DNA of 64,000 nt from Primulina eburnea (lineage: Eukaryota; Streptophyta; Magnoliopsida; Lamiales; Gesneriaceae). The first letter of the stretch is position 1. Each line of letters opens with the position of its first letter. The position numbers were made by a program, and so were the translations under genes. A model generated the notes under the pieces. The model had not been told where the DNA came from and did not search any database. It worked only from the letters and a program-made list of their open reading frames with translations. Shown piece by piece: positions 1 through 22,058 of this stretch. The DNA lies in contig NC_133104.1 of the NCBI RefSeq assembly GCF_022965805.1, positions 24,610,069 through 24,674,068 of the forward strand, in the 5' to 3' direction.

Positions 1-2465
1 AAACACTCCCCACCCCCCTTGCATGGCAGCACACGATCATAGCAATCTAGGAGAGAATTTTCGAAAGGTTCAAGCTAGTTCAAGTCAAGGAGTCCCTACG
101 TTCTTCGTCGTCAACGGATATTCGAGCGTATATAATGCAAAAGAACGCCTAAATCTTTCTTTTCTCATCCATCATATCATATTATGGTTTGAATTATTGT
201 ATGCATGAAGAACATGAAATATTTTTAAGAATTTTCGTAATATTGCATGTAGGCATGAGGGAAGTTGACTTTTGATTCAAATAATTTGTTCTTTGCATGC
301 TAAGGAGCTGCAATGATGCCATATTATGTTTAAGCAAAGCTTTCAAGTAAAACAAAGTCCCACACACACACCAAAGATCGGCAGAAACCAAAGGAAACAA
401 GAAGAAAACTATACACGGCTGTCTTGGGGATAGGGTGATCGGGTTTCATGAGGGAGGGTTGAGCTTGGTCTTGGCTTGGGCCAGGGCTCGGCTAGAGTCT
501 TGCGCAGGTCAGGGGGAGAGTCCTAGCCAAGCTAGGACTCACAGTCAGGGCTGGGGAAGAGTCCTCGCCACGCTAGGACTCTACCCGAGTGCACCGCCGA
601 AAGTGCGTAGGGTTCGCACGGCTGCGGGAGTCCAGGGGCTCGATGCATGGGGCACGTGCTGTTCTAGGGTGGTTCACTAGGGTCCTAAGAAGGTGCATAA
701 GGTGATGGTTCAAGGACTGGGGCGTCTGCTTAGGGTCTAGCCACCAAAACATAGAGTCCATGCAAATGGAAACTCTCGGCCAGCATAGGGTCTCTTAGGA
801 GGGGCTTGTTTTTGGGTTTTGGTTTGGTTTCATGGTAAACTTAGGGTCCAGTAGGCTAATTTATGGTGTTGGGCAAGTTTGGGACCAACATGGTTCGGGG
901 GTAACTCGTGAAAATCGGAAGTTGGCTCGGGGACGAAGTTTAGGTGTCAAATAGGGTGTTTTAAATAAAGAAAAAGTGGAAAACGGCTCGGGGGGGGGGG
1001 GGGGGGGGGGAGGTCGAGTCGTGGTCCATAAGGGCTAAAATAATATAAAAAGACTAAATTTAGAATTTATGAATGTTATATTAAAGATTGAGATTTTTCG
1101 GGATTAAGACATCGTCAAAACAATTAATTAAAGATAAATGAAAAGGTCTAAGTTTTAAGCCAAATAAATTTATGGAAAAATTAATTTAGGCTTAAATAAT
1201 CAATTGGGATATGTTAGAGTCAAGAAATCGAGAAAAAGCCGAAAACGTAAAATGTCGAATCTAGGGGTAAAACAGTCTCTTTACACCTAGAAATTAGTAA
1301 AGGTCATGGCAGTGCCCTAAATGCTGTTTTTATGAAAATATGATTATTTTTAAATGTTTATGAATTATTCATGATTAAAATATGATTTTTAAGTGTTTAA
1401 GGAATTTTTATGATTTACGGAAGACATTTAAAATACATGTTGCATGCTTGGTTTCAAAAATGAAAAATGTTATGTTATTCATGATTTTTATAAAGTGATG
1501 TGAATGAAAAATGTTGAAGCAAGTGCAGTAAAGTGATCGTGACTAATTCGTTAACAATGGCGACGTCGTGAGTGTGATGGTCCCAGTGGGAGCCCGACGA
1601 TCGTGTTTCCATTATTACGAATATGAGGTTATGAGGTTTGAGGAAGAATGAGAATATCGTGAGGGGAGAAGGCACCAGAGGGAGCCCATTTATGGGAGAA
1701 TGCCCCAGAGGGAGCCCCGACAATCGTATTTCTATTTGATCATGTTAGGCCAAGGCTCAGTTGACCGGTGAGAGCGTCGTTGATGTCCCCGCCGCCCAGT
1801 ACTGTGGTTTCATGTAGATGGATCCATCGATTTTCATGTCATGTTGAGAAAAGTCACAATTAATGATCTGATTTCAACAAAGGAAAAAGAAAAATGTTTA
1901 TGATCATGTTAAAGGATTTTATGTCATGTCAAGGAAAATGTTAAGATTTATGTTTGCATGTCATGAAAAGTTATTTTTACTGTGGCATGTGGTTTTATAA
2001 ATATTATTTGATATAAATATGAAGGGTTGTTGAGTCTTTAGACTCACTAGGTGTGATGGATGCAGGTGGGATTGAGGGAGGTCTTGACGAATGATTTGAC
2101 TGGACTGAAGTCGCACACAACCCGAGGACCAGCGCTACTATTTTCCGTATTACGTTTTATGGTTACTGATTTTAAATTAAAGATTTTTAGACTATATATT
2201 TATGCTTTTTGAGAGATTTTTTAGAAGTTTAGTATGTGCTATACTTTTCAAACTTATTGCTTTTTAGGTTTGGTAAACAGTAGACGATTTCAGTTTTATG
2301 ACTATTTCCTTGACTTTTTAAAATGCAAGTTGGTCGATGTTTTATTTTAAAGATTAAAATATTTTATAAAAATATTTTCATGTGGCAAGTATACATGGCC
2401 GAAACTTGAGTGTTTAAAAAAAAATTCTAGTACTTTTAAAGCAATAAAAAGGGCAAGACGTTTCA
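1..2465 (+). repeat. 5' LTR of element A (its start lies outside the window)
   Basis: The sequence from base 1 matches the 3' LTR from about 19848 onward, so roughly the first 550 bp are missing here. It ends in TTTCA just before a tRNA-iMet type primer-binding site. It holds a run of 21 G at 990-1010 and a segment of about 240 bp (around 830-1070) that the 3' LTR lacks. Small ORFs that occur in both LTR copies are explained by LTR duplication and are not called as genes. Confidence 0.9.
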
Positions 2466-6714: not shown

Positions 6715-8296
6715 TGTTGCGACTTTGATTGTTGCACTCCAAAGAGCAGGTTGTCCACAAGTAATATAATTCGGTGAGTCCGAATATCGTATCCACAGGG
6801 AAGCTAAGGTAATTACAAGTCCACTACAATGTCTTTTAGTTTTGTTTTTGTTTTTGTTTCTTTTTAATTTTAATTGTTTGAATATTTAATGGGTAAATTT
6901 TAATTGTTCAAATTTTAATTTAAGTAGTTGAGATTAAAGGATCCACTCTTGGTATTTTAATAAAGTTAACATTAACGAACAATATTGAAATCCACTTAAT
7001 AAAATGGTTCCAATATATTAAATAACCATATTTATATTATGTTATAAATTATTATCTCATAAATATATAATATATACCAAAACTTATAAATGTGGTCAAG
7101 TATTTATTGTGCTATATATATATTTGTAAACACTAAATCAAGGTTCCCACTTTAAATAGTTGGTAAAACCAAACTAACATTTAAATGGTACCAAGAAAAT
7201 ATTATTATGATATATTTATATATAGTAAATCAAGGAATCCAAGTTAAATGGTTGGTAAAAGCAAACTAACATTTAAATGGTTTCAAGAATTTAATATTAT
7301 AATATATTTATATATAATAAATCAAGGCATCCACTTTAAATGGTTGGTAATACCAAACTAACATTTAAATGGTTCCAAGAATTTAGTGTAACATATAGCA
7401 ACAATAAATCAAAACTCCCACTTATAAGTAGGGTATAAAAATACTTAAAGAAATAAATATAACATAAACAATAAATAATGATTAAATAATATAAAACATA
7501 GATTCTTACCTTATAATAACCTTATTATCATGCCAAGAGCTTCACCTTATCATCTCAACTTTAGGAAGTTAGCTATTGATTATTCAAAGTGTAAAACTTT
7601 GAATATGAAATTAACATGCTAATTATATTTAAATGTAGAAATAAAAGAAAAATATAGAGAGAAATATTATGAACTGAAAGATTTGTTCATAGAATGAGGG
7701 ATATCCCAATACATTACAATGCACCCCTATTTATAGCCAAATTTGGGGAGACAACCACAAATAAAATATTATTTTTTACACATAAGTCTTCATTGGTGTT
7801 CCAAGAAATTAATATTATATTACACATCACTTTTGAAAATCTTCTTCTCCGAATTTACTTCTTCACATAAAAAGAAACATGTGGATAATTGAGTTGTCTA
7901 ATTGTCGTATTTTTTTCTGAATATTTGACCAAGTAATTTGAGAGATATGGTCAAAATACTAGAGCATGGTAAAACTGCCACTCCTTTGGTAACTTTAATT
8001 GTTGATTAATTTGATCCCACTTGTGAGAGGATTTTTATCTCATGCTTGGCAACAATATTGTAGATCATATAATCAACTTTCTACAGGTCCAAGAATCATC
8101 TTAATCCCATTTGCAACGCCAAGGTAATTCTTGTTTTATCGAACCTGTAAAAAATAGTAAAAACTTATAATTACACAACAACTTATATTTTATACAATTT
8201 ATTATAAAACATATAATATTTAAACATTTAATAAAACAAAAACTATATATTTATATTATAAAACATTTAATTAATGTACAATTTTTATGTTTATCA
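6715..8296 (-). repeat. 3' LTR of the Athila element
   Basis: This 1582-bp sequence matches 16542-18121. It contains three tandem units of exactly 92 bp starting at 7135, 7227 and 7319, each opening with AAATCAAGG. It ends next to the purine tract at 8297. Confidence 0.93.
7135..7390. repeat. Three 92-bp tandem repeats inside the LTR
   Basis: Units start at 7135, 7227 and 7319. Each holds TTTAAATGGTTGGTAA or a near copy, followed by CCAAACTAACATTTAAATGG. The same array stands in the other LTR at 16960, 17052 and 17144. It may be part of the LTR promoter region, but that is inferred only from its position. Confidence 0.85.
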
Positions 8297-8309
8297 CATC
8301 TCCCAACCA
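8297..8309 (-). other. Polypurine tract of the Athila element
   Basis: On the minus strand GGTTGGGAGATG directly precedes the 3' LTR, which is the position where plus-strand priming occurs. Confidence 0.7.
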
Positions 8310-9531
8310 GCTTATTGCTAGTCCCTAGCAATTTAAGCGTTAATAGCAATACAAAACATATTGATTAATTTAAATAGAAATGTAATCAGAACTATCTAAG
8401 TGTTTAAATTAAATTTGAAAACTGTCAAAGTTATATCAAGATCATCATAATTATAATTTATGAAATAATTTGAGATGATTAATTCAAAGCTTATTTCAGG
8501 TAGTTAAATGTATACGGCCTTTAGAAATTCCTAGTAAGAGTCTCAACTCCAAATCCTCACAGGTTAATAAATGTTTCAATTTATGGCAATGATTTCTCTC
8601 ATGGAGTTGGAATACAGATAAATGCTCAGAAAAATGGTTTACAGAATGCAGACAGACAAACGAGGCAAACTAATCAAAAGATAGGAAATCCATTGATTTA
8701 AAATCCAGTTGTTCTTATTATATATATATATATATTTTTCCTGATTTTTTTTTTTACATCATGGAATCAAACTAAGTTTATGCTTCTTCACCACATATTT
8801 ATTTAATTTGTACAATGTAATTCTCTCTCTCTTTTTTTTTATTTGTACTTTTATGAGAGAAAAATGGGTCGCAGCATATAACTTAAATTACATAAATCTT
8901 CAACATCTTTCTTTTTTTTTTCTTCGCTTTTTTTTTTTTTCAGAAATATCAATTTTTTTTTAAAAAAAAATAAGAACTCAAATCTAAACAATTGATAGCC
9001 TCTCCGATGATCAATAAAGGCTCGCAAGATGTTTTCTCAATCCTCTCCACTCACTCACAAAATATGTGTGAGTTCAAAAATTTTAGCCACTCTTATAAGG
9101 TATATCTTGGGCCATATACTTTAATACCTAATTTTATAACAATGGTTAATCACTCAAAAAAATTTGATAAATCATAATTTTATATTGATCAGAATATTAA
9201 AAATGACCTTTTTTCAAATAAAAATTTAAACATTCTTATATAGATTAATGCATGTTCTAATTTAAATCTTTCAAATATGTAATGTATGACATTTTTGCAA
9301 AAATTACTAATGTACAAACAATAAACATGGTTTTATTTTAAAATAATATTTAATTTTTTTTTAAAAATTTTTTTTTTTTTTAAAATGTGTTCTCCCCCCA
9401 ATCAGAATATGACATTGTCCCTAATGTCAAAATAGCTATTAATAAAGAGTACATAATGAAAGAGATATCACCTGGAATTTTATTGAAGATAACAAACTGA
9501 AACAAACGCAAACCAATCCACGATGTTTGAA
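8310..9531 (-). other. Non-coding 3' region of the Athila element
   Basis: This is an AT-rich stretch with long T runs (around 8740-8755, 8830-8840, 8910-8960 and 9355-9383) and a short TA tract near 8720. I see no coding frame with a recognisable product. It lies between the LOG-like ORF and the polypurine tract and probably serves as the 3' untranslated part of the element RNA. Confidence 0.6.
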
Positions 9532-10170
9532 TCAATGATCCAACTTCCTTTTCTTACTGCTTGATTGCGACCAATTGATCTTTGTTATCATCGGATCAGG
9601 CTTATGAACAAAAGCTTCCAAATCATCAATTAATTGATCGGCAGTCGAAGCACAGATGAGCATCCGTCGTGAATTTTCCGAAATGAAATTCTGTTCCACA
9701 GCTTTATCAAGAAATGTCAACAAACTGTCATAATAATTATTGATATTCAACAAGCCCACATGTTTATTATGGATATTAAGTTGTGCCCAAGAAACAGTGT
9801 GAAAAATTTCTTCTAATGTACCAAAACCACCTGGTAGTGCGATAAAAGCATCAGAATTTTCAATCATTTGAGTGATTCTTTCATACATAGAAGAAACTTT
9901 TAATTCTTCCCCAATCGTAACACCTGTAATATTTCCTTCAGCTAAAGCTATAGGAATAATACCCAAAACCTGACTACCTCCAAGATGAGCAGATGTTGAA
10001 ACAGATCCCATTAACCCAATATTACCTCCCCTATATACCAAGTGAATTTTTCTCTCAGCCAATATCTTTCCAAGATTATTCACTACTTCTACAAACACTT
10101 CATTTTTTCCAGGACTCGACCCACAAAATACACAAATATTTTTCAATGTTTGTGCAGAGGATCCAGCCAT
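9532..10170 (-). CDS. LOG-family protein (cytokinin riboside 5'-monophosphate phosphoribohydrolase-like) inside the Athila element
   Basis: The 212-residue ORF has the whole LOG fold signature: NICVFCGSSPG at 11-21, an YRGGNIGLMG loop at 46-55, R98 in MYERIT, SDAFIALPGGFGTLEE ending at 121, and WAQLNIHNKHVGLLN at 128-142. Family members release active cytokinin bases from nucleoside 5'-monophosphates. The PGGxGTxxE motif and the nearby Arg form the active site, and both are kept. The first glycine of the usual GGG loop is Arg here. The usual Lys after that Arg is also changed, so activity is not assured. The C-terminus ends KKRKLDH, a possible nuclear signal. The ORF has no introns, whereas plant LOG genes usually have several, which suggests capture through RNA. 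It lies between pol and the 3' LTR, in pol orientation. The ATG context is AAAACATGG. Confidence 0.9.
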   Translation of the reverse strand: MAGSSAQTLKNICVFCGSSPGKNEVFVEVVNNLGKILAERKIHLVYRGGNIGLMGSVSTSAHLGGSQVLGIIPIALAEGNITGVTIGEELKVSSMYERITQMIENSDAFIALPGGFGTLEEIFHTVSWAQLNIHNKHVGLLNINNYYDSLLTFLDKAVEQNFISENSRRMLICASTADQLIDDLEAFVHKPDPMITKINWSQSSSKKRKLDH

Positions 10171-10190
10171 GTTTTTACTTTCTTTTTTTT

Positions 10191-10215
10191 TCTGCGAAAA
10201 TAGAGAGAAAGATGA
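10191..10215 (-). promoter_or_regulatory. Candidate splice acceptor upstream of the LOG-like ORF
   Basis: On the minus strand a pyrimidine tract, CTTTCTCTCTATTTTCGCAG, ends about 20 bases before the LOG-like ATG. It would suit a spliced subgenomic mRNA. The call is by motif only. Confidence 0.4.
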
Positions 10216-10223
10216 GAGATTTT

Positions 10224-10379
10224 TTAGGGGTAATATGTTATCATGACAAAACTATGGGTCACAGCTGTAAACAGAATAAATAGTAAAAACAATAATGACA
10301 CACATGCATATAAACAGTAGCGTGATTGTGGCTCACAATTTTCCTCTGGTTTTACGTCCAGAAACGGCTTCAACGCCTT
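10224..10379 (-). other. In-frame 51-codon extension after the TAG stop of the Cys-rich ORF, with a membrane-like segment
   Basis: Directly after the TAG at 10380-10382 the same frame stays open for 51 codons to a TAA at 10224. It contains LYACVSLLFLLFILFTAV, a strong transmembrane-type segment. It could be translated only by readthrough or splicing. In T-rich DNA such hydrophobic runs also arise by chance, so this is recorded as a possibility and not as a gene. Confidence 0.3.
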
Positions 10380-10925
10380 CTATGAGTCGAGGATATGCTT
10401 CCCATCCAATTTTCTTATAAATTGGCAAACAGGGTCTTTTTTAGTCAGATTCCCAAGACTATGACGCTCATCTTGGAATTGTTTCCATAAACGGAGAAGT
10501 TCAATATGCACATGTCCACTAGAATGCGTCTCAAGAGTCAATAAGATGTTATCTAAAGACTCCTTACTCAGCCCATTCTTAATGAAACCAATTTTATCTT
10601 CTCTGTTATCGGAAACACATCCCAAAGATCTGCATCGTTTGTCACAAGTCCATCTTGCACACTTATGACATACCCCTAACCTTTTGGCCCTTCGTTTTTT
10701 CGCATAAGTGCTTTTTCCTAATCCAGGCAAATATCGAATAAGCAATGATTGTGGAACTTCTCCTCCTAATCGGACCTTAGCTTCTATTACAAGACGAATA
10801 TCTTCTGGAATTCCTTTTTGCATTAACAATCTCAATCTTTCACACCTTCCTGCATAAATTTTTCTTAGAACATTTTCAGAAACAGAGGGAAAATATTTAC
10901 AAATTTTTGAGAGAATTTCATCCAT
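10380..10925 (-). CDS. Cys-rich basic protein resembling carlavirus nucleic-acid-binding proteins, inside the Athila element
   Basis: The 181-residue ORF has a helical, leucine-rich N-terminal part. A segment reading GIPEDIRLVIEAK (38-50) leads to STYAKKRRAKRLG (72-84), and a cysteine cluster follows at once: C86, C89, C94, C98, C103. A short YA(K/R)(K/R)RRA basic block directly before a zinc-finger-like CX2C...CX4C, with a FIxxG segment behind it (114-118), is the layout I recognise from the cysteine-rich protein of carlaviruses. Those proteins bind nucleic acid and in several cases suppress RNA silencing. The loop between the cysteine pairs is shorter here, and a C-terminal part (119-181) is unassigned. 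It shares orientation and position with the LOG-like ORF, between pol and the 3' LTR. The ATG context is CAAAATGG. The family call is by eye and could be wrong. Confidence 0.6.
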   Translation of the reverse strand: MDEILSKICKYFPSVSENVLRKIYAGRCERLRLLMQKGIPEDIRLVIEAKVRLGGEVPQSLLIRYLPGLGKSTYAKKRRAKRLGVCHKCARWTCDKRCRSLGCVSDNREDKIGFIKNGLSKESLDNILLTLETHSSGHVHIELLRLWKQFQDERHSLGNLTKKDPVCQFIRKLDGKHILDS

Positions 10926-10984
10926 TTTGAAAAGAAAAGAAATGATTTTTTTTTATTTTTTGTATCAGCAATTGTGGGAAACTG

Positions 10985-11034
10985 ATTTAACCGACTATGA
11001 GAGTCACGGAGTACCGTTATCCGCCATTTAACCG
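10985..11034 (-). promoter_or_regulatory. Pair of identical 9-mers upstream of the Cys-rich ORF
   Basis: CGGTTAAAT (minus strand) occurs twice, at 10985-10993 and 11026-11034, in a less AT-rich island between the end of pol and the Cys-rich ORF. A promoter or RNA signal is possible but unproven. Confidence 0.3.
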
Positions 11035-11058
11035 GTAAAATAAAAAGATTAAGGAAAC

Positions 11059-11080
11059 CTGAAAAACAAACAAAATTAAA
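11059..11080 (-). promoter_or_regulatory. Candidate splice acceptor between pol and the Cys-rich ORF
   Basis: On the minus strand TTTTGTTTGTTTTTCAG lies just after the pol stop and about 135 bases before the ATG at 10925. Env-like frames of retroelements in this position are commonly expressed from spliced RNA. The call is by motif only. Confidence 0.4.
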
Positions 11081-11094
11081 TGCAACATAAAAAT

Positions 11095-11754
11095 TTAAGG
11101 ATCAGAAAGGGAAATAAACTCTTCTTGAAAGATTTCATTTTCCAAAAATGGTTTAAGCCTTTGTCCATTCACTTTAAAAACATCACCATTTTTAGAATTT
11201 TCAATATCCACAGCTCCATAAGGATACACATGCTTTACAACATATGGGCCTGTCCATCTTGATCGTAATTTGCCTGGGAATATGTGAAGTCGAGAATTAT
11301 AAAGCAAAACTTTTTTACCAATCTCAAAAGATTTTCTAAGAATTGTTTTATCATGAAATGATTTGATTTTTGCTTTATAAATCCTTGAATTCTCATACGC
11401 ATCATTTCTGAGTTCATCAAGTTCATTAAGTTGCAATTTACGCAATTTGTTGGCATCATCCATGCTTGAATTTAAAGTTTTGATCGCCCAATAAGCTTTA
11501 TGTTCCAATTCTACAGACAAATGACAATGTTTTCCATAAACCAACCTATAGGGAGACATATTCAATGATGTTTTAAAAGCTGTTCGATATGCCCAAAGTG
11601 CATCATTAAGTCGCAGAGACCAATCTTTTCTATTTAAGTTAACAGTTTTTTCCAAAATTTGCTTTATCTCCCTATTAGCTAATTCAACTTGTCCATTTGT
11701 TTGAGGATGATAAGGAGTAGTTACTTTGTGAGTAATACCATATTTTTTCATTAA
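11095..11754 (-). pseudogene. C-terminal part of the Athila integrase (separated by a frameshift)
   Basis: The frame opens with KKYGITHKV and [17 protein letters not shown]. The Glu of this block is the last of the DDE catalytic triad. It continues through [16 protein letters not shown] and the C-terminal RWTGPYVV segment typical of Athila integrases. It is out of frame with the upstream pol ORF because of one extra T in a T run near 11777-11781. Without that shift the integrase would be complete. Confidence 0.85.
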
Positions 11755-14700
11755 TGAAGCAAATGGTTTATTAAAAAGTGAGTTCCCCCATCACTTATCA
11801 TAGCTCGAGGAATTCCGAATCTACTAAAAATATTTTCTTTCAAAAATTTGATGACGATTTTATGATCATTTGTTCGACATGGAATTGCCTCTATCCATTT
11901 GGAAACGTAATCTACTGCAACTAAAATATACAAGTATCCAAACGACGGTGGAAAAGGTCCCATAAAATCAATTCCCCAACAGTCAAAGATTTCAATTTCA
12001 ATGATAGGATTCAAAGGCATCATGTTTCTTTTTGAAATTGCACCCAATTTTTGACAATTTTCAAAGATCTTGCAGATTTCGTGGGTGTCTTTAAACAAAG
12101 TGGGCCAATAAAATCCACACTGCAAAATTTTTGCAGCCGTTTTCTTTGAAGAAAAATGTCCTCCGCATGCTTCTGAATGACAAAATTTAATGACACTACT
12201 TACCTCATTGTCGGGTATGCAACGTCGAAAAATTTGATCTGGACAGTACTTGAACAGATACGGATCATCCCAATAAAAGTTTTTTACCTCATTCAAAAAT
12301 TTTCTCTTATCTTGGGAACTCCATTGCGGTGGCATTTTTCCTGTCACAAGAAAATTTACTATGTTAGCAAACCAAGGTGTAGTAGTAACTGAAAATAGAT
12401 GTTCATAAGGAAAATTATCGTTAATTGGTGTTATTTCAAAAGATGATCCTGTTACTAGTCTCGATAAATGATCGGCTACAACAATCTCGGTTCCTTTTTT
12501 ATCTTTGATCACAATGTCAAATTCTTGGAGCAACAAAATCCATCGTATCAGTCGTGGCTTTGCTTCCTGTTTCGTCAACAAATATCTAATAGTAGAATGA
12601 TCAGTAAACACAATAGTCGTTGATCCAATCAAATAAGAACGAAATTTATCTAATGCAAATATTACAGCAAGTAGTTCTTTTTCAGTTGTGGAGTAATTCA
12701 TTTGAGCATTGTTTAAAGTTCTACTTGCATAATATATCACATAAGGCTTACCGTTTCTTCTTTGACCCAGTACTGCACCGACTGCATAATCACTCGCGTC
12801 GCACATGATTTCAAATGGTAAAGACCAATCAGGAGGATGCATGATAGGAGCTGATGTTAAATGTCGAATGATTTTATCAAAAGCATTTTGACATTCTTGA
12901 GTCCACTCAAATGCAGGGTCTTTTGTTAAGAGGTTACAAATGGGTTTAGAGATTAAACTAAAGTCCTTTATAAACCTCCTATAAAATCCAGCATGTCCCA
13001 AAAATGAGCGAATTTCTTTAATGGTTTTTGGAGGGGGTAAATTGGCAATGACATCGACTTTTGCTTTATCAACTTCAATTCCATGAGATGACACGACATG
13101 TCCCAAAACAATTCCAGAAGTAATCATGTAATGACATTTTTCCCAATTTAAAATAAGACCTTTTTCCTCGCATCTTTTTAAAACTTTTTCCAAATTTTCA
13201 AGACAATTATCAAATGTATTCCCAAAGACAGTTAAATCATCCATGAAAATTTCCAAAAAATTTTCAACCATGTCGCAAAAAATGCTTAGCATACATCTTT
13301 GAAATGTTGCTGGGGCATTGCATAATCCAAATGGCATCCTTCTAAATGCAAATGTTCCAAAAGGACATGTGAATGTAGTTTTATCTTGATCTTCGAGTGC
13401 AATGGGAATTTGATAATAGCCTGAATATCCATCAAGAAAATAGTAGTATGGATGACCTGCTGCTCTTTCTAAAATTTGATCCAAAAATGGTAATGGAAAA
13501 TGATCTTTTCTAGTGGCATCATTTAATTTTCTATAGTCAATACACATCCGCCAACTAGATGGGACTCGACTTGTTAACAATTCACCTTTTTCATTTTTTA
13601 TCACTGTGATGCCAGATTTTTTTGGAACTACTTGTGTTGGGCTTACCCACTTACTATCAGAAATGGGGTAGATAATCCCAACATCAAGTAGTTTGAGAAC
13701 TTCAGTTTTCACAACATCTTTCATGTGTGGATTTAATCTCCTTTGTGGTTGTTGAGATGTTTTTGCATTTTCTTCTAAATGAATTTTGTGTGTGCAAATT
13801 AGTAGATTAATGCCCTTAAGATCTTTTAGTGTCCAACCAATTGCATTTTTATGTCTTTTAAGCATATCAACTAATTTACCTTCTTGATCACTTTCTAGTT
13901 TGGAAGAAATTACCACTGGATATGTTTCATCTTCTCCAAGAAATGCATACTTCAATTCTTCTGGCAAGGGTTTTAACTCCAATATTGGTGGTTCGTCTTT
14001 GTTCTCATATTTTGCATCAAATTCTTTCTCTGATCCTGTTAACGAGTGATACCTGATAAAATCATCAAGATCAATTTCAATATTTTCTTTAACAGTTTCA
14101 ATTGAACAAATATCTAATTGATCACGAGTACTCCCTTCTTGAATGTTTTCTTCCACAAGAGTTTCAATAAGATTTTCATCTTCACTTTCATCTCCTTTGT
14201 CATGTGGTTGCTTACAAAGATTAAAAACATTGAGCTCCAAGGTCATGTTACCAAATGACAACTTCATTATTCCATTCCTGCAATTTATAAGAGCATTAGA
14301 AGTTGCTAAAAATGGACGACCCAAAATTACAGGCATTGCATTACAAGTTTCGATAGGTTGTGTATCTAAAACTATGAAATAGACAGGATATACAAAGTTA
14401 TCAACTTGGACCAACACGTCTTCTACCATACCTCTTGGCACTTTAACAGATCTATCGGCAAGTAAAAGTGTTACCGAAGTAGGTTTTAACTCGCCTAGAT
14501 TGAGTTCTTGATAAACTGAATATGGAAGTAAATTCACACTAGCTCCAAGATCAAGCAAGGCTTTTTTAATCTTTCGTTCTCCAATAATACAAGAAATAGT
14601 AGGACAACCAGGGTCTTTGTATTTCAAAGCATTATTATTTTGAATGATTGCACTTACTTGTTCTGCTAAAAATGCTTTCTTTTTTACATTAAATTTTCTT

Positions 14701-15248
14701 TTCACAGTGCACAAGTCTTTCAAAAATTTGGCATATGATGGTACCTGTTTTATTGCATCTAATAAAAGAATATTAACTTTTACTTGTTTAAAAATATCAT
14801 ATATATCAGAATTCAAATTTGATTTTTTTGTATTTTTCAATGCATGAGGGAATGGTGGTGACACTGTCTGTTGAACCTCCTCTTCGCAAGTTATGGGTTC
14901 CACTTCCTTACCCTTTGGAGTTGATTTATCATCATCTTCACAAGGTTCAAGAATGGATTTTTCCACAACCTTACCTCTTCGAAGGGCAATAACATATTTT
15001 ACCTGATCCATCGGTTGAGTTCCAGAAGTTCCACTTTGTGTATGATGATCCTTGGGATTAGGCAGAGGTTGTGAAGGAAATTTACCTTTTTCACGAACAT
15101 TAAGTGCAGATGCAAATTTAGCAAGAGTATCTTTCAAATCTGTCATGGTTTGAGCAGTTTGAGTATTGATAGACTCTTGCTTTGCAATGAAAGAATTCAA
15201 TGTATCTTCCAAATTTCTTTTCGACGGAGGAACATAAGGTGCATAATT
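11751..15248 (-). CDS. Athila pol: protease, reverse transcriptase, RNase H, integrase N-terminal and core parts
   Basis: More than 1150 codons are open. Residue numbers count from the TTG at 15212. The Athila-type [10 protein letters not shown] block lies near 158, the protease motif LLDLGAS near 219, RT with [10 protein letters not shown] and a catalytic FMDD near 655, RNase H with [14 protein letters not shown], the integrase HHCC zinc finger near 1015 and the first two catalytic Asp ([17 protein letters not shown]). The frame is the same as gag. Gag and pol are separated only by one TAA at 15249-15251, so no ATG start is needed if that stop is read through or is a recent mutation. The ORF ends at a frameshift in integrase. 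Confidence 0.9.
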
Positions 15249-16406
15249 TTAAAAATTTTGTTGATTTTGAAAATTTGGTTGCGGAAATTGTGCAGCATTA
15301 TCATTCCTCCAACTAAAATTTGGATGGTTTCGCCAACCTGGATTGTAATTTTGAGAAAATGGTTCAAAATTCGGCCTTTTGAAATTGTTCAAAATATTGG
15401 CTTGTTCATGGAGACATTCTTTAAAAGAGGGAAAAGTGGGACAATCTTTTGTAAAATGATCACTTGTATCACAGATGTGACACGCAATTTCTTGAACAGA
15501 TTTTAATTGACCATTCTTTTTCAATTCAAGTGCCTCAACTTTTCTTGCCAAAGAGGTAAATCTAGCTTGAAGATCATGTTCATCTTTGAGAGTGTACATA
15601 CCTCCACCAGATGTAGGAGATTGAATCTTGTTTGATGGTTCGATTGTACCTATAGTGTCCCAATTTTGAGCATTTTCAGCTAATGAATCGAGATACTCAA
15701 TTGCCTCGTTTGGATCTTTATCTTCAAATGTTCCATTACACATAAATTCAACCATTTGCCTATATTTAGGTGTTAAGCCTTCATAAAATTGAGAAACAAC
15801 TCTCCAAATTTCAAAACCATGATGTGGACAAAGATTAAGCAATTCTTTGTATCTATCCCAACACTGATAAAAAGTTTCTCCTTGTTTTTGAGTGAAAGTG
15901 ATGATTTGCCTTTTGAAAGAATTTGTTCTATGAGATGGAAAAAACTTTTTCAAAAATTGTTGTTGCAATTCATCCCAAGTTCGAATAGATCCCGATCTAA
16001 GATTTTGTAGCCAAGTTTTAGCTTTATCTTTTAAAGAAAAAGGAAAAAGTTTAAGGCGAATGGTGTTCATGCTACAATTTAGATCATTATATGTGTTGCA
16101 CACTTCTTCAAACTTTCGTAAATGCATGTATGGATTTTCAGAATCTAAGCCATGAAAGTTGGGTAAAAGTTGGATAATACCAGGCTTAAAATTGAAATGA
16201 GATGCATCAGGGGGAAAAACTAGACATGAAGGTGCACTAGTACGTGTAGGATTCATGTGATCTCTAAGTGTTCTTCGTCTATCATGATCATGTTGAGATT
16301 GAATTTCATCTTCATTTTCTTGGATGGGTTCTTCCACCATGTTTTGTAAAAATAAAGGGTTATTTCGAATGAGTCGACCACTAAGTGTACGTGACCAAAT
16401 GCTCAT
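15249..16406 (-). CDS. Athila gag
   Basis: The chosen start is the ATG at 16406 (MSIWSRTLSGR). An upstream in-frame ATG at 16463 would add 19 mostly hydrophobic residues. The protein holds the Retrotrans_gag core (YMHLRKFEEVC, FPFSLKDKAKTWL, FLKKFFPSHRT, CPHHGFE) that matches the Athila type, then a zinc knuckle CHICDTSDHFTKDC (CX2CX4HX4C), and it ends in an Asn/Gln-rich tail. It forms the particle that packages element RNA. It starts about 110 bases after the primer-binding site and ends in TAA, in the same frame as pol. Confidence 0.9.
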   Translation of the reverse strand: MSIWSRTLSGRLIRNNPLFLQNMVEEPIQENEDEIQSQHDHDRRRTLRDHMNPTRTSAPSCLVFPPDASHFNFKPGIIQLLPNFHGLDSENPYMHLRKFEEVCNTYNDLNCSMNTIRLKLFPFSLKDKAKTWLQNLRSGSIRTWDELQQQFLKKFFPSHRTNSFKRQIITFTQKQGETFYQCWDRYKELLNLCPHHGFEIWRVVSQFYEGLTPKYRQMVEFMCNGTFEDKDPNEAIEYLDSLAENAQNWDTIGTIEPSNKIQSPTSGGGMYTLKDEHDLQARFTSLARKVEALELKKNGQLKSVQEIACHICDTSDHFTKDCPTFPSFKECLHEQANILNNFKRPNFEPFSQNYNPGWRNHPNFSWRNDNAAQFPQPNFQNQQNF

Positions 16407-16516
16407 GGAAATACAAATGCAAATGCAAAAGAATAAAACCACACAAAAGCAATAAAAATTCAAATAAAGAAAAATAAACTATAAACAATATTAAATAAAC
16501 TTGAAATTAAAATATA

Positions 16517-16535
16517 CTTCCCGGCAACGGCGCCA
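16517..16535 (-). other. Primer-binding site of the Athila element
   Basis: TGGCGCCGTTGCCGGGAAG on the minus strand lies six bases inside the 5' LTR. TGGCGCCGTTGCCGGGG-type sites are typical of the Athila and Tat lineages. Confidence 0.88.
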
Positions 16536-16541
16536 AAAACT

Positions 16542-18121
16542 TGTTGCGACTTTGATTGTTGCACTCCCAAGAGCAGGTTGTCCACAAGTAATATAATTCG
16601 GTGAGTCCGAATATCGTATCCACAGGGAAGCTAAGGTAATTACAAGTCCACTACAATGTCTTTTTGTTTTGTTTTTGTTTTTGTTTCTTTTTAATTTTAA
16701 TTGTTTGAATATTTAATGGGTAAATTTTAATTGTTCAAATTTTAATTTAAGTAGTTGAGATTAAAGGATCCACTCTTGGTATTTTAATAAAGTTAACATT
16801 AACGAACAATATTGAAATCCACTTAATAAAATGGTTCCAATATATTAAATAATCATATTTATATTATGTTATAAATTATTATCTCATAAATATATAATAT
16901 ATACCAAAACTTATAAATGTGGTCAAGTATTTATTGTGCTATATATATTTGTAAACACTAAATAAAGGTTCCCACTTTAAATGGTTGGTAAAACCAAACT
17001 AACATTTAAATGCTACCAAGAAAATATTATTATGATATATTTATATATAGTAAATCAAGGAATCCAAGTTAAATGGTTGGTAAAACCAAACTAACATTTA
17101 AATGGTTCCAAGAATTTAATATTATAATATATTTATATATAATAAATCAAGGCATCCACTTTAAATGGTTGGTAATACCAAACTAACATTTAAATGGTTC
17201 CAAGAATTTAGTGTAACATATAGCAACAATAAATCAAAACTCCCACTTATAAGTAAGGTATAAAAATACTTGAAGAAATAAATATAACATAAACAATAAA
17301 TAAAGATTAAATAATATAAAACTTAGATTCTTACCTTATAATAACCTTATTATCATGCCAAGAGCTTCACCTTATCATCTCAACTTTAGGAAGTTAGCTA
17401 TTGATTATTCAAAGTGTAAAAGTTTGAATATGAAATTAACATGCTAATTATATTTAAATGAAGAAATAAAAGAAAAATATAGAGAGAAATATTATGAACT
17501 GAAAGATTTGTTCATAGAATGAGGGATATCCCAATACATTACAATGCACCCCTATTTATAGCCAAATTTGGGGAGACAACCACAAATAAAATATTATTTT
17601 TTACACATAAGTCTTCATTGGTGTTCCAAGAAATTAATATTATATTACACATCACTTTTGAAAATTTTCTTCTCCGAATTTTCTTCTTCACATAAAATGA
17701 AACATGTGGATAATTGAGTTGTCTAGTTGTGGTATTTTTTTCTGAATATTTGACCGAGTAATTTGAGAGATATGGTCAAAATACTAGAGCATGGTAAAAC
17801 TGCCACTCCTTTGGTAACTTTAATTGTTGCTTAATTTGATCCCACTTGTGAGAGGATTTTTATCTCATGCTTGGCAACAATATTGTAGATCTTATAATCA
17901 ACTTTCTACAGGTCCAAGAATCATCTTAGTCCCATTTGCAACGCCAAGGTTATTCTTGTTTTATCAAACCTGTAAAAAATAGTAAAAACTTATAATTACA
18001 CAACAACTTATATTTTATACAATTTATTATAAAACATATAATATTTAAACATTTAATAAAACAAAAACTATATATTTATATTATAAAACATTTAATTAAT
18101 GTACAATTTTTATGTTTATCA
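16542..18121 (-). repeat. 5' LTR of the Athila element
   Basis: This 1580-bp copy of 6715-8296 begins TGTTGCG and ends TTATCA (plus strand). The 92-bp triple repeat stands at 16960-17220. The two LTRs differ at about 25 positions by my count, plus one 2-bp indel in a TA tract. Confidence 0.93.
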
Positions 18122-19295: not shown

Positions 19296-22058
19296 TGTAA
19301 GGTCCAAAATTAAGACGACGTAATCCAACTGCATGCGAATCTAAGAAATAATGAAAAAATAAGTAATAATTGATTTTAATTGCTAATTACTTATGTGACA
19401 TACTTGTTTATATGTTAAATGAGATTTTTATTGTCATCATGCATAAAATGGTATTTTTATGGAATATTCAAGCGACGATCGAGGAACGGGGACCGAGGGC
19501 TGAAAAATGTAACATTTTTTTATTAAATAATTATTTAAAATATGGTGGTCGTTTTTAGTACTTTTTAAATAAAGGGTTTTGAGGTGATTTTATACGCCGG
19601 GGCGTAAGTTTTATCGGTATGGGTTTTTGAACAAAATACGAGCTTCTTGACAACCCGGCTAATAAATTCACATATTTAATTCAAGAAAAACTTTGTCAAT
19701 ATCTTAATTATGTCCTAATTAGACTAATGGGCCTAATTTAATGTCTTAATAGGACTAAGGCCTAGTTAGTGACTAATTAGTATATAATATGTATCAAACC
19801 CTACACTCCACACCATAAACCATCGGCCACACGCTTCACTTTTCTGAAAACACTCCCCACGCCCCTTGCATGGCAGCACACGATCATAGCAATCTAGGAG
19901 AGAATTTTCGAAAGGTTCAAGCTAGTTCAAGTCAAGGAGTCCCTATGTTCTTCGTCGTCAACGGATATTCGAGTGTATATAATGCAAAAGCACGCCTAAA
20001 TCTTTCTTTTCTCATCCATCATATCATATTATGGTTTGAATTATTGTATGCATGAAGAACATGAAATATTTTTAAGAATTTTCGTAATATTGCATGTAGG
20101 CATGAGGGAAGTTGACTTTTGATTCAAATAATTTGTTCTTTGAATGCTAAGGGGCTTCCATGATGCCATATTATGTTTACGCAAATCTTTCAAGTAAAAC
20201 AAAGTCCCACACACACACCCAAGATCAGCAGAAACAAAAGGAAACAAGAAGAAAATTGTACACGGCTGTCTTGGGGATAGGGTGATCGGGTTTCATGATG
20301 GAGGGTTGAGCTTGGTCTTGGCTTGGGCCAGGGCTCGGCTAAAGTCTTGCACGAGTCAAGGGGAGAGTCCTAGCCAAGCTAGGACTCACGGTCATGGCTG
20401 AGGAGGAGTCATAGCCACGCTAGGACTCTACCCGAGTGAACAGCCGAAAGTGCGCAGGGTTCGCACGACTGCGGGAGTCCAGGGGCTCGATTCATGGGCC
20501 ACGGGCTGGGCTAGGGTGGTTCACTAGGGTCCTAAGAAGGTGCATAAGGTGATGGTTCAAGGGCTGGGCGTCGGCTTAGGTCTGGCCACCAAAACATAGA
20601 GTCCATGCAAGTGGAAACTCTCGGCCAGCATAGGGTCTCTTAGGAGGGGCTTGTTTTTGGGTTTTGTGTTGGTTTCATGGTCTCTTAGGAGGGGCTTTCT
20701 ATTAAATTTTGGGAATTTTTCGGGATTAAAACACCGCAAAACAATTAATTAAATATAAATGAAAAATTCTAAGTTTTAGGCCAAATAAAATTATGGAAAA
20801 ATTAATTTAGGCTTAAATAATTAATTGGGATATGTTAGAGTCAAGAAATCAAGAAAAATCCGAAAACGTAAAATATCGAGTCTAGGGGTAAAACGGTCTT
20901 TTTACACCTAGAAATTATTAAAGGTCATGGCAGTTCCCTAAATGTTGTTTTTATGAAAATATGATTATTTTTAAATGTTTATGAATTGTTCATGACTAAA
21001 ATATGATTTTTAAGTGTTTAAGGAATTTTTATGATTTACGGAAGACATTTAAAATACATGTTGCATGATTGGTTTCAAAAATGAAAAATGTTATGTTATT
21101 CATGATTTTTATAAAGTGATGTGAATGAAAAATGTTGAATGAAGTGAAGTGATTGTGACTAATTCGTTAATAATGGCGACGTCGTGAGGGTGATGGTCCG
21201 AGTGGGAGCCCGACGATCGTGTTTCCATTATTGCGAACATGAGGTTATGAGGTTCGAGGAAGAATGGGAATATCGTGACGGGAGAAGGCCCCAGAGGGAG
21301 CCCATTTATGGGAGAAGACCCCAGAGGGAGCCCTGACAATCGTATTTCTATTCGATCATGTTAGGCCAAGGCTCAGTTGACCGGTGAGAACGTCGCTGAT
21401 GTCCCTGCCGCCCAGTACTGTGATTGTAGATAGGTCCATCGATTTTCATGTCATGTTGAGGGAAGTCACAATTAATGATCTGAATTCAAAAAGGAAAAGG
21501 AAAATGTTTATGATCATGTTAAAGGATTTTATGTCATGTCAAGAAAAATGTTAAGATTTATGTTTGCATGTCATGAAAAGTTATTTTTACTTACAAGTAT
21601 TTTCATTATTGCATGTGCTTTTTTAAATTATTATTTGATATAAAGATGAAGGTGTGTTGAGTCTTTAGACTCACTAGGTATGATGGATGCAGGTGGGATT
21701 GAGGGAGGTATTGACGAATGATTTGACTGGACTGAAGGCGCACACAACCCGTTGTGTGGACCAGCGCTACTATTTTCCGCATTACGTTTTATGATTACTG
21801 ATTTTAAATTAAAGATTTTTAGACTATTTATTTATGCTTTTTGAGAGATTTTTGAGAGGTTTAGTTTGTGCTATATTTTTCAAACTTATTGCTTTCTAAG
21901 TTTGTTAAACAGTAGACGATTTCAGTTTTATGACTATTTCACTTGACTTTTTAAAATGCAAGTTGGTCAATGTTTTATTTTAAAGAGTAAAATATTTTAT
22001 ACAAAAATTTTCATGTGGCAAGTATATATGGCCGAAACTTGAGTGTTTAAAAAAAAAA

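What the first reader, a model, noticed from the sequence alone, without database searches (positions are those of the whole stretch)
9532..10925. A young Athila retrotransposon carries a LOG cytokinin-activating enzyme and a virus-like Cys-rich protein in the env position
Two intact, intronless ORFs with good ATG contexts stand between pol and the 3' LTR, in the orientation of pol, inside an element with clear LTRs, PBS, PPT and TSD. One is a LOG-family protein. The other has the layout of a carlavirus nucleic-acid-binding protein. LOG raises active cytokinin and so cell division. Carlavirus Cys-rich proteins bind nucleic acid and can suppress silencing or affect host transcription. A retroelement with both could act on host meristem cells and on silencing, which would help germline transmission. 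The function is inference. The arrangement is seen directly. I know of no description of it.
Basis: partly seen in the sequence, partly recalled or inferred. Interest (0 to 1): 0.93.

Follow-up and report, generated by a model that had tools for sequence, protein, structure and literature searches.

The report
Retrotransposon with virus-like and hormone-enzyme genes
A plant retrotransposon carries two extra genes, one related to an RNA-virus protein that suppresses host silencing and one related to the enzyme that activates the hormone cytokinin, and evolution has kept both, so they probably help the element persist in its host.

Summary
Between pol and the 3' LTR of an Athila-type element (6715-18121, minus strand) stand two ORFs: a flexivirus-type nucleic-acid-binding protein (NABP, 10380-10925) and a LOG-family protein (9532-10170). 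They are not a late local insertion: the host genome (Primulina eburnea, inferred) holds at least 150 copies of each; in 61 of 61 copies examined LOG sequence stands beside NABP (LOG intact in 50). A second family carries both; between families dN/dS is 0.20 (LOG), 0.15 (NABP), 0.08 (integrase). Relatives occur in rosids and asterids. LOG in Gypsy elements is already in print; I found no report of the NABP there. Corrections: retro-LOGs form one clade apart from the host LOGs sampled; they keep the catalytic Arg/Glu, but 117 of 117 lost the pocket lysine and glutamate, so cytokinin activation is unproven. 99 of 120 carry a basic cluster plus LxLxL (EAR-like) tail, seen in 0 of 120 host LOGs (the window copy keeps only the basic part). 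Two conserved noncoding stretches flank or overlap NABP's ends. Best reading: an old retrotransposon lineage with selected accessory genes, probably anti-silencing or regulatory; mechanism untested.

The parts
6715..18121 (-). Whole LTR retrotransposon (family A copy), TSD TTTGA on both sides
   Evidence: LTR pair; TSD and ends
16542..18121 (-). 5' LTR
   Evidence: 98.3% to the other LTR over 1582 columns
6715..8296 (-). 3' LTR
16518..16535 (-). Primer binding site TGGCGCCGTTGCCGGGAA (tRNA-Asp type, recalled)
   Evidence: sequence
8297..8304 (-). Short purine-rich run GGGAGATG next to the 3' LTR, candidate PPT
   Evidence: sequence
15249..16463 (-). gag ORF
   Evidence: PF03732 E 3.8e-21
11751..15212 (-). 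pol ORF: protease-like, RT, RNase H, integrase (frame breaks near 11,750)
11095..11751 (-). Integrase C-terminal part in a second ORF
   Evidence: (rve_3 below cut-off)
11059..11075 (-). Splice-acceptor-like site TTTTGTTTGTTTTTCAG before NABP (hypothesis)
   Evidence: 67 of 1000 shuffles as good
10985..11037 (-). E1, conserved noncoding stretch with small predicted hairpins
10380..10925 (-). NABP ORF, 181 aa
10320..10460 (-). E2, nucleotide-conserved block over the NABP C-terminus and about 60 nt past its stop
   Evidence: 92-97% to family B in the core 10324-10443
10192..10215 (-). Splice-acceptor-like site before LOG (hypothesis)
   Evidence: 15 of 1000 shuffles as good
9532..10170 (-). LOG-family ORF, 212 aa, ends in KKRKLDH

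Best explanation
This is one copy of an old, widespread Athila-type sublineage that carries two accessory genes in the env position, kept by selection. SHOWN: the order integrase-NABP-LOG in two element families of one genome, at high copy number, with dN/dS well below 1; the LOG belongs to a retro-LOG clade apart from the host LOGs sampled; NABP matches flexivirus NABP profiles. INFERRED: a retroelement ancestor took up a LOG copy (intronless, so probably via mRNA) and a flexivirus-type NABP before or during its spread through eudicots. NABP, with a basic run and a Cys cluster, works for the element as viral CRPs do for viruses: it binds nucleic acid and weakens silencing or alters host transcription. 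Retro-LOG is a phosphoribohydrolase-type protein with a changed base pocket and a basic (nuclear-type) tail; it changes local cytokinin or another nucleotide pool, or, in lineages with LxLxL, recruits TOPLESS-type co-repressors. Both may be made from spliced RNAs, with E1/E2 as RNA signals (weakest step).
For: At least 150 scored copies of each ORF (limit of the tool; 1430 and 1461 first-look candidates). 61 copies: LOG intact 50/61; NABP 55/61 (copies were picked by NABP score, so biased); integrase C-term 45 of 60 found. Variants shared by 3 or more copies, N/S per site: LOG 0.15, NABP 0.27, integrase 0.09; singletons 0.56, 0.64, 0.92. Family A against B, one pair per gene: dN/dS LOG 0.20 (bootstrap 0.12-0.30), NABP codons 1-150 0.15 (0.08-0.30), integrase 0.08 (0.04-0.12), dS 1.2-1.6. 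Spread: named NABP hits in Xanthoceras, Populus, Rhamnella, Acer, Orobanche; LOG in Populus, Reevesia, Diplodiscus, Paulownia, Primulina. P0081 joins Athila-type integrase to NABP (65% over 133 aa). Retro-LOG clade 100/98. Catalytic Arg 114/117, Glu 113/117 kept. Basic cluster plus LxLxL in 99/120, host LOGs 0/120. Viral CRPs as silencing suppressors, one as transcription factor: passages of PMC12172455.
Against: No expression, splicing or protein data. Selection shows usefulness to the element lineage, not which function. In family B the NABP frame ends early in the five copies read, so full-length NABP is not needed by every family; 5 of 61 family-A copies lost most of LOG, two with one breakpoint. 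dS is near saturation. The pocket changes speak against ordinary cytokinin activation. Families A and B lack LxLxL. The NABP model is weak (pLDDT 65.7) and no viral match reaches E 0.001. Of four acceptor-like sites one beats shuffles clearly (15 of 1000; the others 67, 152, 539).
Confidence: 0.55

Rival explanations
1. One reading: retro-LOG is an ordinary cytokinin-activating enzyme that stimulates division of meristem cells, where the element is then inherited.
For: LOG family match; catalytic Arg and Glu kept in 114 and 113 of 117; purifying selection.
Against: Lys100 and Glu125, which PMC4979012 assigns to the prenyl pocket, are lost in 117 of 117 retro-type LOGs but kept in 120 of 120 host LOG1/3/4.
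Confidence: 0.15
2. NABP serves only the element's own replication, as a nucleic-acid chaperone or packaging protein for its RNA, and has no action on host silencing or transcription.
For: Basic run plus Cys cluster; conserved RNA stretches E1 and E2 next to its gene.
Against: Gag already has a zinc knuckle (weak); viral relatives act on the host. Not tested directly.
Confidence: 0.2
3. Passenger genes: LOG and NABP were carried along and amplified with the element without use; apparent constraint comes from recent amplification of few source copies.
For: Many copies are near-identical; NABP cut short in family B; LOG-less derivatives exist.
Against: Between-family dN/dS 0.20 and 0.15 with dS above 1; open relatives in several eudicot families (databases favour open frames).
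Confidence: 0.08

Closest known systems
LOG/YgdH-bearing Gypsy elements of Citrus and Populus (PMC9289625, section 12 read; it cites Steinbauerova et al. 2011)
   Same: A LOG-type domain as extra coding part of plant Ty3/Gypsy elements
   Different: In what I read there: no viral NABP beside it ('carla' 0 occurrences), no selection test, pocket or tail analysis. The 2011 paper is not held; that it names Athila-like elements and LOGL4 is recalled
Flexivirus (carlavirus-type) cysteine-rich NABP/CRP
   Same: Profile matches above Pfam cut-offs; basic run followed by a Cys cluster
   Different: About 182 aa, spacing CX2CX4CX3C, lies in a retrotransposon
Athila4/Calypso-type elements with an env-like 3' ORF (recalled; cited in PMC7264820, passages seen)
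   Same: Sense ORFs between pol and 3' LTR
   Different: Here two small genes of other families in that place
Orchid Gypsy elements with an AlkB m6A demethylase (PMC9289625, abstract and section 12)
   Same: Extra enzyme gene fixed in a Gypsy lineage
   Different: Other gene, other lineage
Animal retrotransposons with RNA-virus genes (PMC5177903, PMC7642597; search listing and abstract starts only)
   Same: RNA-virus sequence taken up by a retroelement
   Different: Animals, other viral genes

Membership tests
Athila lineage of Ty3/Gypsy | Ty3-type order protease-RT-RNase H-integrase | tested here: met
   Pfam domains in order; protease models below their cut-offs
Athila lineage of Ty3/Gypsy | Placement by RT/INT tree against reference elements | not tested
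   No reference set at hand; the label rests on layout, PBS type and recall
Athila lineage of Ty3/Gypsy | Sense extra ORF(s) between pol and 3' LTR | tested here: met
LOG (cytokinin riboside 5'-monophosphate phosphoribohydrolase) | LOG family profile | tested here: met
   PF03641 E 4.6e-36; 2a33 E 3.7e-60
LOG (cytokinin riboside 5'-monophosphate phosphoribohydrolase) | Catalytic Arg99 and Glu122 (CgLOG numbering, PMC4979012) | tested here: met
   Present in the window; 114 and 113 of 117 relatives
LOG (cytokinin riboside 5'-monophosphate phosphoribohydrolase) | Prenyl-pocket residues Met96, His97, Lys100, Glu125, Trp129 | tested here: not met
   Window has M, Y, I, H, W; Lys100 and Glu125 lost in 117 of 117
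LOG (cytokinin riboside 5'-monophosphate phosphoribohydrolase) | Cytokinin-releasing activity | not testable with these tools
   Needs an enzyme assay
Carlavirus-type NABP/CRP | Carla_C4 above the curated cut-off | tested here: met
   29.5 bits against 20.9
Carlavirus-type NABP/CRP | Basic NLS-like run next to the Cys cluster | tested here: met
   KKRRAKRLGVCHKC in the window; a basic run matched in 116 of 120 homologs
Carlavirus-type NABP/CRP | Zinc-finger spacing CX2CX12CX4C (PMC10141686, passages) | tested here: not met
   0 of 120
Carlavirus-type NABP/CRP | Fold match to viral NABPs | tested here: inconclusive
   22 of the top 24 BFVD matches are named flexivirus proteins (2 unnamed), best E 0.029, model pLDDT 65.7
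EAR-motif proteins | LxLxL in the protein tail | tested here: not met
   Absent in the window copy; present in 103 of 120 relatives

The most novel reading that the evidence does not exclude
A plant counterpart of a complex retrovirus: NABP is a regulatory RNA-binding protein acting on the element's own conserved RNA stretches E1 and E2 (a Rev/RRE-like or anti-silencing circuit), while retro-LOG, freed from ordinary cytokinin chemistry and sent to the nucleus (in many lineages with a co-repressor tail), reprograms host nucleotide, hormone or transcription state in cells where the element replicates. The pair has been inherited together since before or soon after the rosid-asterid split.
Probability: 0.2. 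Interest if true: 0.92.

Novelty: new variant of a known kind. Interest (0 to 1): 0.7.

Why it matters
A plant retrotransposon lineage has kept, under purifying selection and at high copy number, a relative of an RNA-virus silencing suppressor next to a hormone-enzyme relative. That makes the old question of what extra ORFs of plant LTR retrotransposons do testable with two genes of known biochemistry. Retro-type LOGs are listed as host LOG genes (Primulina LOG3-like, Populus LOGL10), which can mislead cytokinin gene-family studies; for Primulina P0129 the element context is shown here, for Populus not tested.

Tried and rejected
Late local insertion with its own ends: rejected; the pair stands in the same order in 61 of 61 family-A copies examined (LOG truncated in 5) and in five family-B copies. 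Ordinary processed LOG pseudogene: rejected by tree and dN/dS. Viral contig collection: two scans found no relative. Rfam: no family at E1/E2 (a MIR166 match at 9524-9603 with E 0.51 taken as chance). Intron as explanation of the family-B NABP insert: no acceptor AG at its 3' edge in the sequence. First test of E1+E2b within family A, measured as difference from the window copy, was not significant (3614 of 10000); the majority-based measure, chosen after seeing that private changes of the window copy count in the first, gave 1 of 10000. Further families in this genome: the Paulownia LOG query gave a list in which the two places fetched were family-A-like; Orobanche NABP and host LOG queries did not complete.

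Full report
What is there. The window holds an LTR retrotransposon on the minus strand, 6715-18121, with LTRs of about 1.58 kb, 98.3% identical, TG...CA ends, TSD TTTGA, PBS TGGCGCCGTTGCCGGGAA and a short purine run before the 3' LTR. Gag is at 15249-16463, pol at 11751-15212 with protease-like, RT, RNase H and integrase matches. The integrase C-terminus lies in a second ORF, 11095-11751, because this copy has a frame break there. Of four family-A copies looked at, L010 and L062 read through, L029 does not, and L016 gave no frame that could be judged; the family-B copy L077 reads through. Between pol and the 3' LTR are the two ORFs of the finding, both above Pfam's curated cut-offs.

Where it lives.

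Copies. The genome search scored 150 NABP and 150 LOG matches (its limit) out of 1430 and 1461 first-look candidates, 96-100% identical, nearly all without stops. I fetched 60 further copies from the NABP list and used the window copy as the 61st. LOG sequence stands beside NABP in 61 of 61: intact 50, frameshift 5, stop 1, truncated 5. NABP: intact 55, stop 6 (biased by the choice). Integrase C-terminus found in 60: intact 45, frameshift 8, stop 5, truncated 2, of which L045 is cut only by my fetch. Variants shared by at least three copies are poor in amino-acid changes (N/S per site: LOG 0.15 from 5 N and 9 S; NABP 0.27 from 10 and 10; integrase 0.09 from 4 and 12), singletons less so (0.56, 0.64, 0.92). 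Truncated rows were left out of these counts (n 56, 61, 58).

A second family. A LOG 66-68% identical, listed by NCBI as the gene 'LOG3-like' (P0129), is multi-copy: 80 of the 150 matches (82-100% identical to P0129) precede the family-A ones. I read five copies. L077 has integrase 82% identical, then NABP, then LOG; the other four were fetched only from NABP on and show NABP then LOG. One pair per gene, family A against B: dN/dS 0.20 (0.12-0.30) for LOG, 0.15 (0.08-0.30) for NABP codons 1-150, 0.08 (0.04-0.12) for integrase; dS 1.2-1.6. The similar dS fits joint descent but is near saturation. In all five copies the NABP frame ends before the conserved C-terminal block; an insert with a stop is seen there, and L077 has an earlier stop as well. 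This speaks against a need for full-length NABP in every family.

Spread. 340 NABP relatives were found (120 listed), with names from Xanthoceras, Populus, Rhamnella, Acer and Orobanche, so rosids and asterids. LOG relatives of this type have names from Populus, Reevesia, Diplodiscus, Paulownia and Primulina among the 120 listed of 7943. A Rhamnella protein joins Athila-type integrase to NABP (65% over 133 aa); a Xanthoceras protein joins LOG to a pol piece (48% over 50 aa). Two NABP/LOG pairs have equal contig lengths (P0031 and P0126, 8723; P0015 and P0192, 4511), which suggests shared contigs. Inheritance and horizontal spread were not separated, and protein databases favour open frames.

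The LOG. In a tree of 55 rows (29 of the 120 listed, the window, one Xanthoceras piece, 21 of 120 host LOG1/3/4 proteins, AtLOG8, two bacterial LOGs) the 30 retro-type LOGs form one clade (100/98); host LOGs with AtLOG8 form another (100/94). P0124 and P0175 were left out. Other host LOG types were not sampled, so the donor is not identified. In the numbering of PMC4979012 (passages) catalytic Arg99 and Glu122 are kept in 114 and 113 of 117; Lys100 and Glu125 are replaced in 117 of 117; 120 of 120 host proteins keep all four, and so do three Xanthoceras chimeras, which were counted apart. So the protein probably still handles nucleotides, but its use of cytokinin precursors is doubtful. 103 of 120 end with LxLxL, 99 have LxLxL and a basic cluster within the last 30 residues, host LOGs 0 of 120. 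LxLxL is a published EAR consensus (abstract start of PMC9956375). The window's family and family B keep only the basic part.

The NABP. Cysteines 86, 89, 94 and 98 are at least 90% conserved over 92 sequences, in a spacing unlike the carlavirus one. The model is of modest confidence (pLDDT 65.7); 22 of the top 24 viral matches are named flexivirus proteins and two are unnamed, best E 0.029. Homology rests on the Pfam scores. Viral CRPs are described as silencing suppressors, one also as a transcription factor causing hyperplasia (passages of PMC12172455). Whether virus or plant element had the gene first is open.

Noncoding stretches. Against family B, the core of E2 (10324-10443), which includes about 60 nt past the NABP stop, is 92-97% identical in 60-nt windows; E1 reaches 82%; NABP and LOG coding DNA is 58-85%, integrase 68-83%, other spacer 38-55%. 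Within family A, E1+E2b vary less than other spacer (0.0055 against 0.0228; 1 of 10000 random site sets as low); the earlier measure was not significant. E1 folds into the same three small hairpins in both families. For E2, the isolated stretch gives similar hairpins, and one G-C pair of A is A-U in B, but a 150-nt fold of B pairs that part differently. With two families this is suggestive only, and recombination between families is not excluded. Acceptor-like sites stand before both ORFs; shuffles as good: 15 (LOG, A), 67 (NABP, A), 152 (NABP, B), 539 (LOG, B) of 1000, so splicing is a hypothesis.

What is known. LOG/YgdH in Gypsy elements of Citrus and Populus is in print (PMC9289625, section 12 read). 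In PMC7264820 'log' and 'carla' do not occur; PMC6317226 was searched for 'log' only (0). No paper on a carlavirus-type NABP in plant LTR elements was among those listed (20 of 67, 20 of 47, 2 of 2, 15 of 2209 and 15 of 109 listed); this is not proof of absence. RNA-virus genes in animal retrotransposons are known (listing and abstract starts).

Verdict. A real and maintained gene pair in an old plant retroelement lineage. LOG capture is known; the NABP and the pairing appear undescribed in what I could search. Mechanism open, anti-silencing or regulatory action most likely.

Noticed in passing
window 15814-15922 (+): Full-length Rfam snoR71 match (38.4 bits, cut-off 40, E 6.4e-5), antisense to the gag ORF.
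   Followed up: no
P0129, P0166, P0171, P0216: Retro-type LOGs named as host genes: LOG3-like in Primulina, LOGL10 in Populus. P0129 is multi-copy and beside integrase; the Populus ones were not checked.
   Followed up: partly
L077-L081: Family B NABP frame ends early, with an insert just before the nucleotide-conserved C-terminal block, in the five copies read.
   Followed up: partly
L009, L011, L012, L050, L059: Family-A derivatives that lost most of LOG but keep NABP; L009 and L011 share a breakpoint and lie 66 kb apart.
   Followed up: partly
window 8313-8334 (-), approximate: Perfect hairpin TTGCTAG-GGA-CTAGCAA shortly upstream of the purine run and 3' LTR.
   Followed up: no
window 1-836 and 19848-20681: 94.7% direct repeats of an older + strand Ty3/Gypsy-like element into which this element inserted.
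   Followed up: partly
window 7023-7506 and 16848-17331: Repeats at 92-bp spacing inside both LTRs.
   Followed up: no
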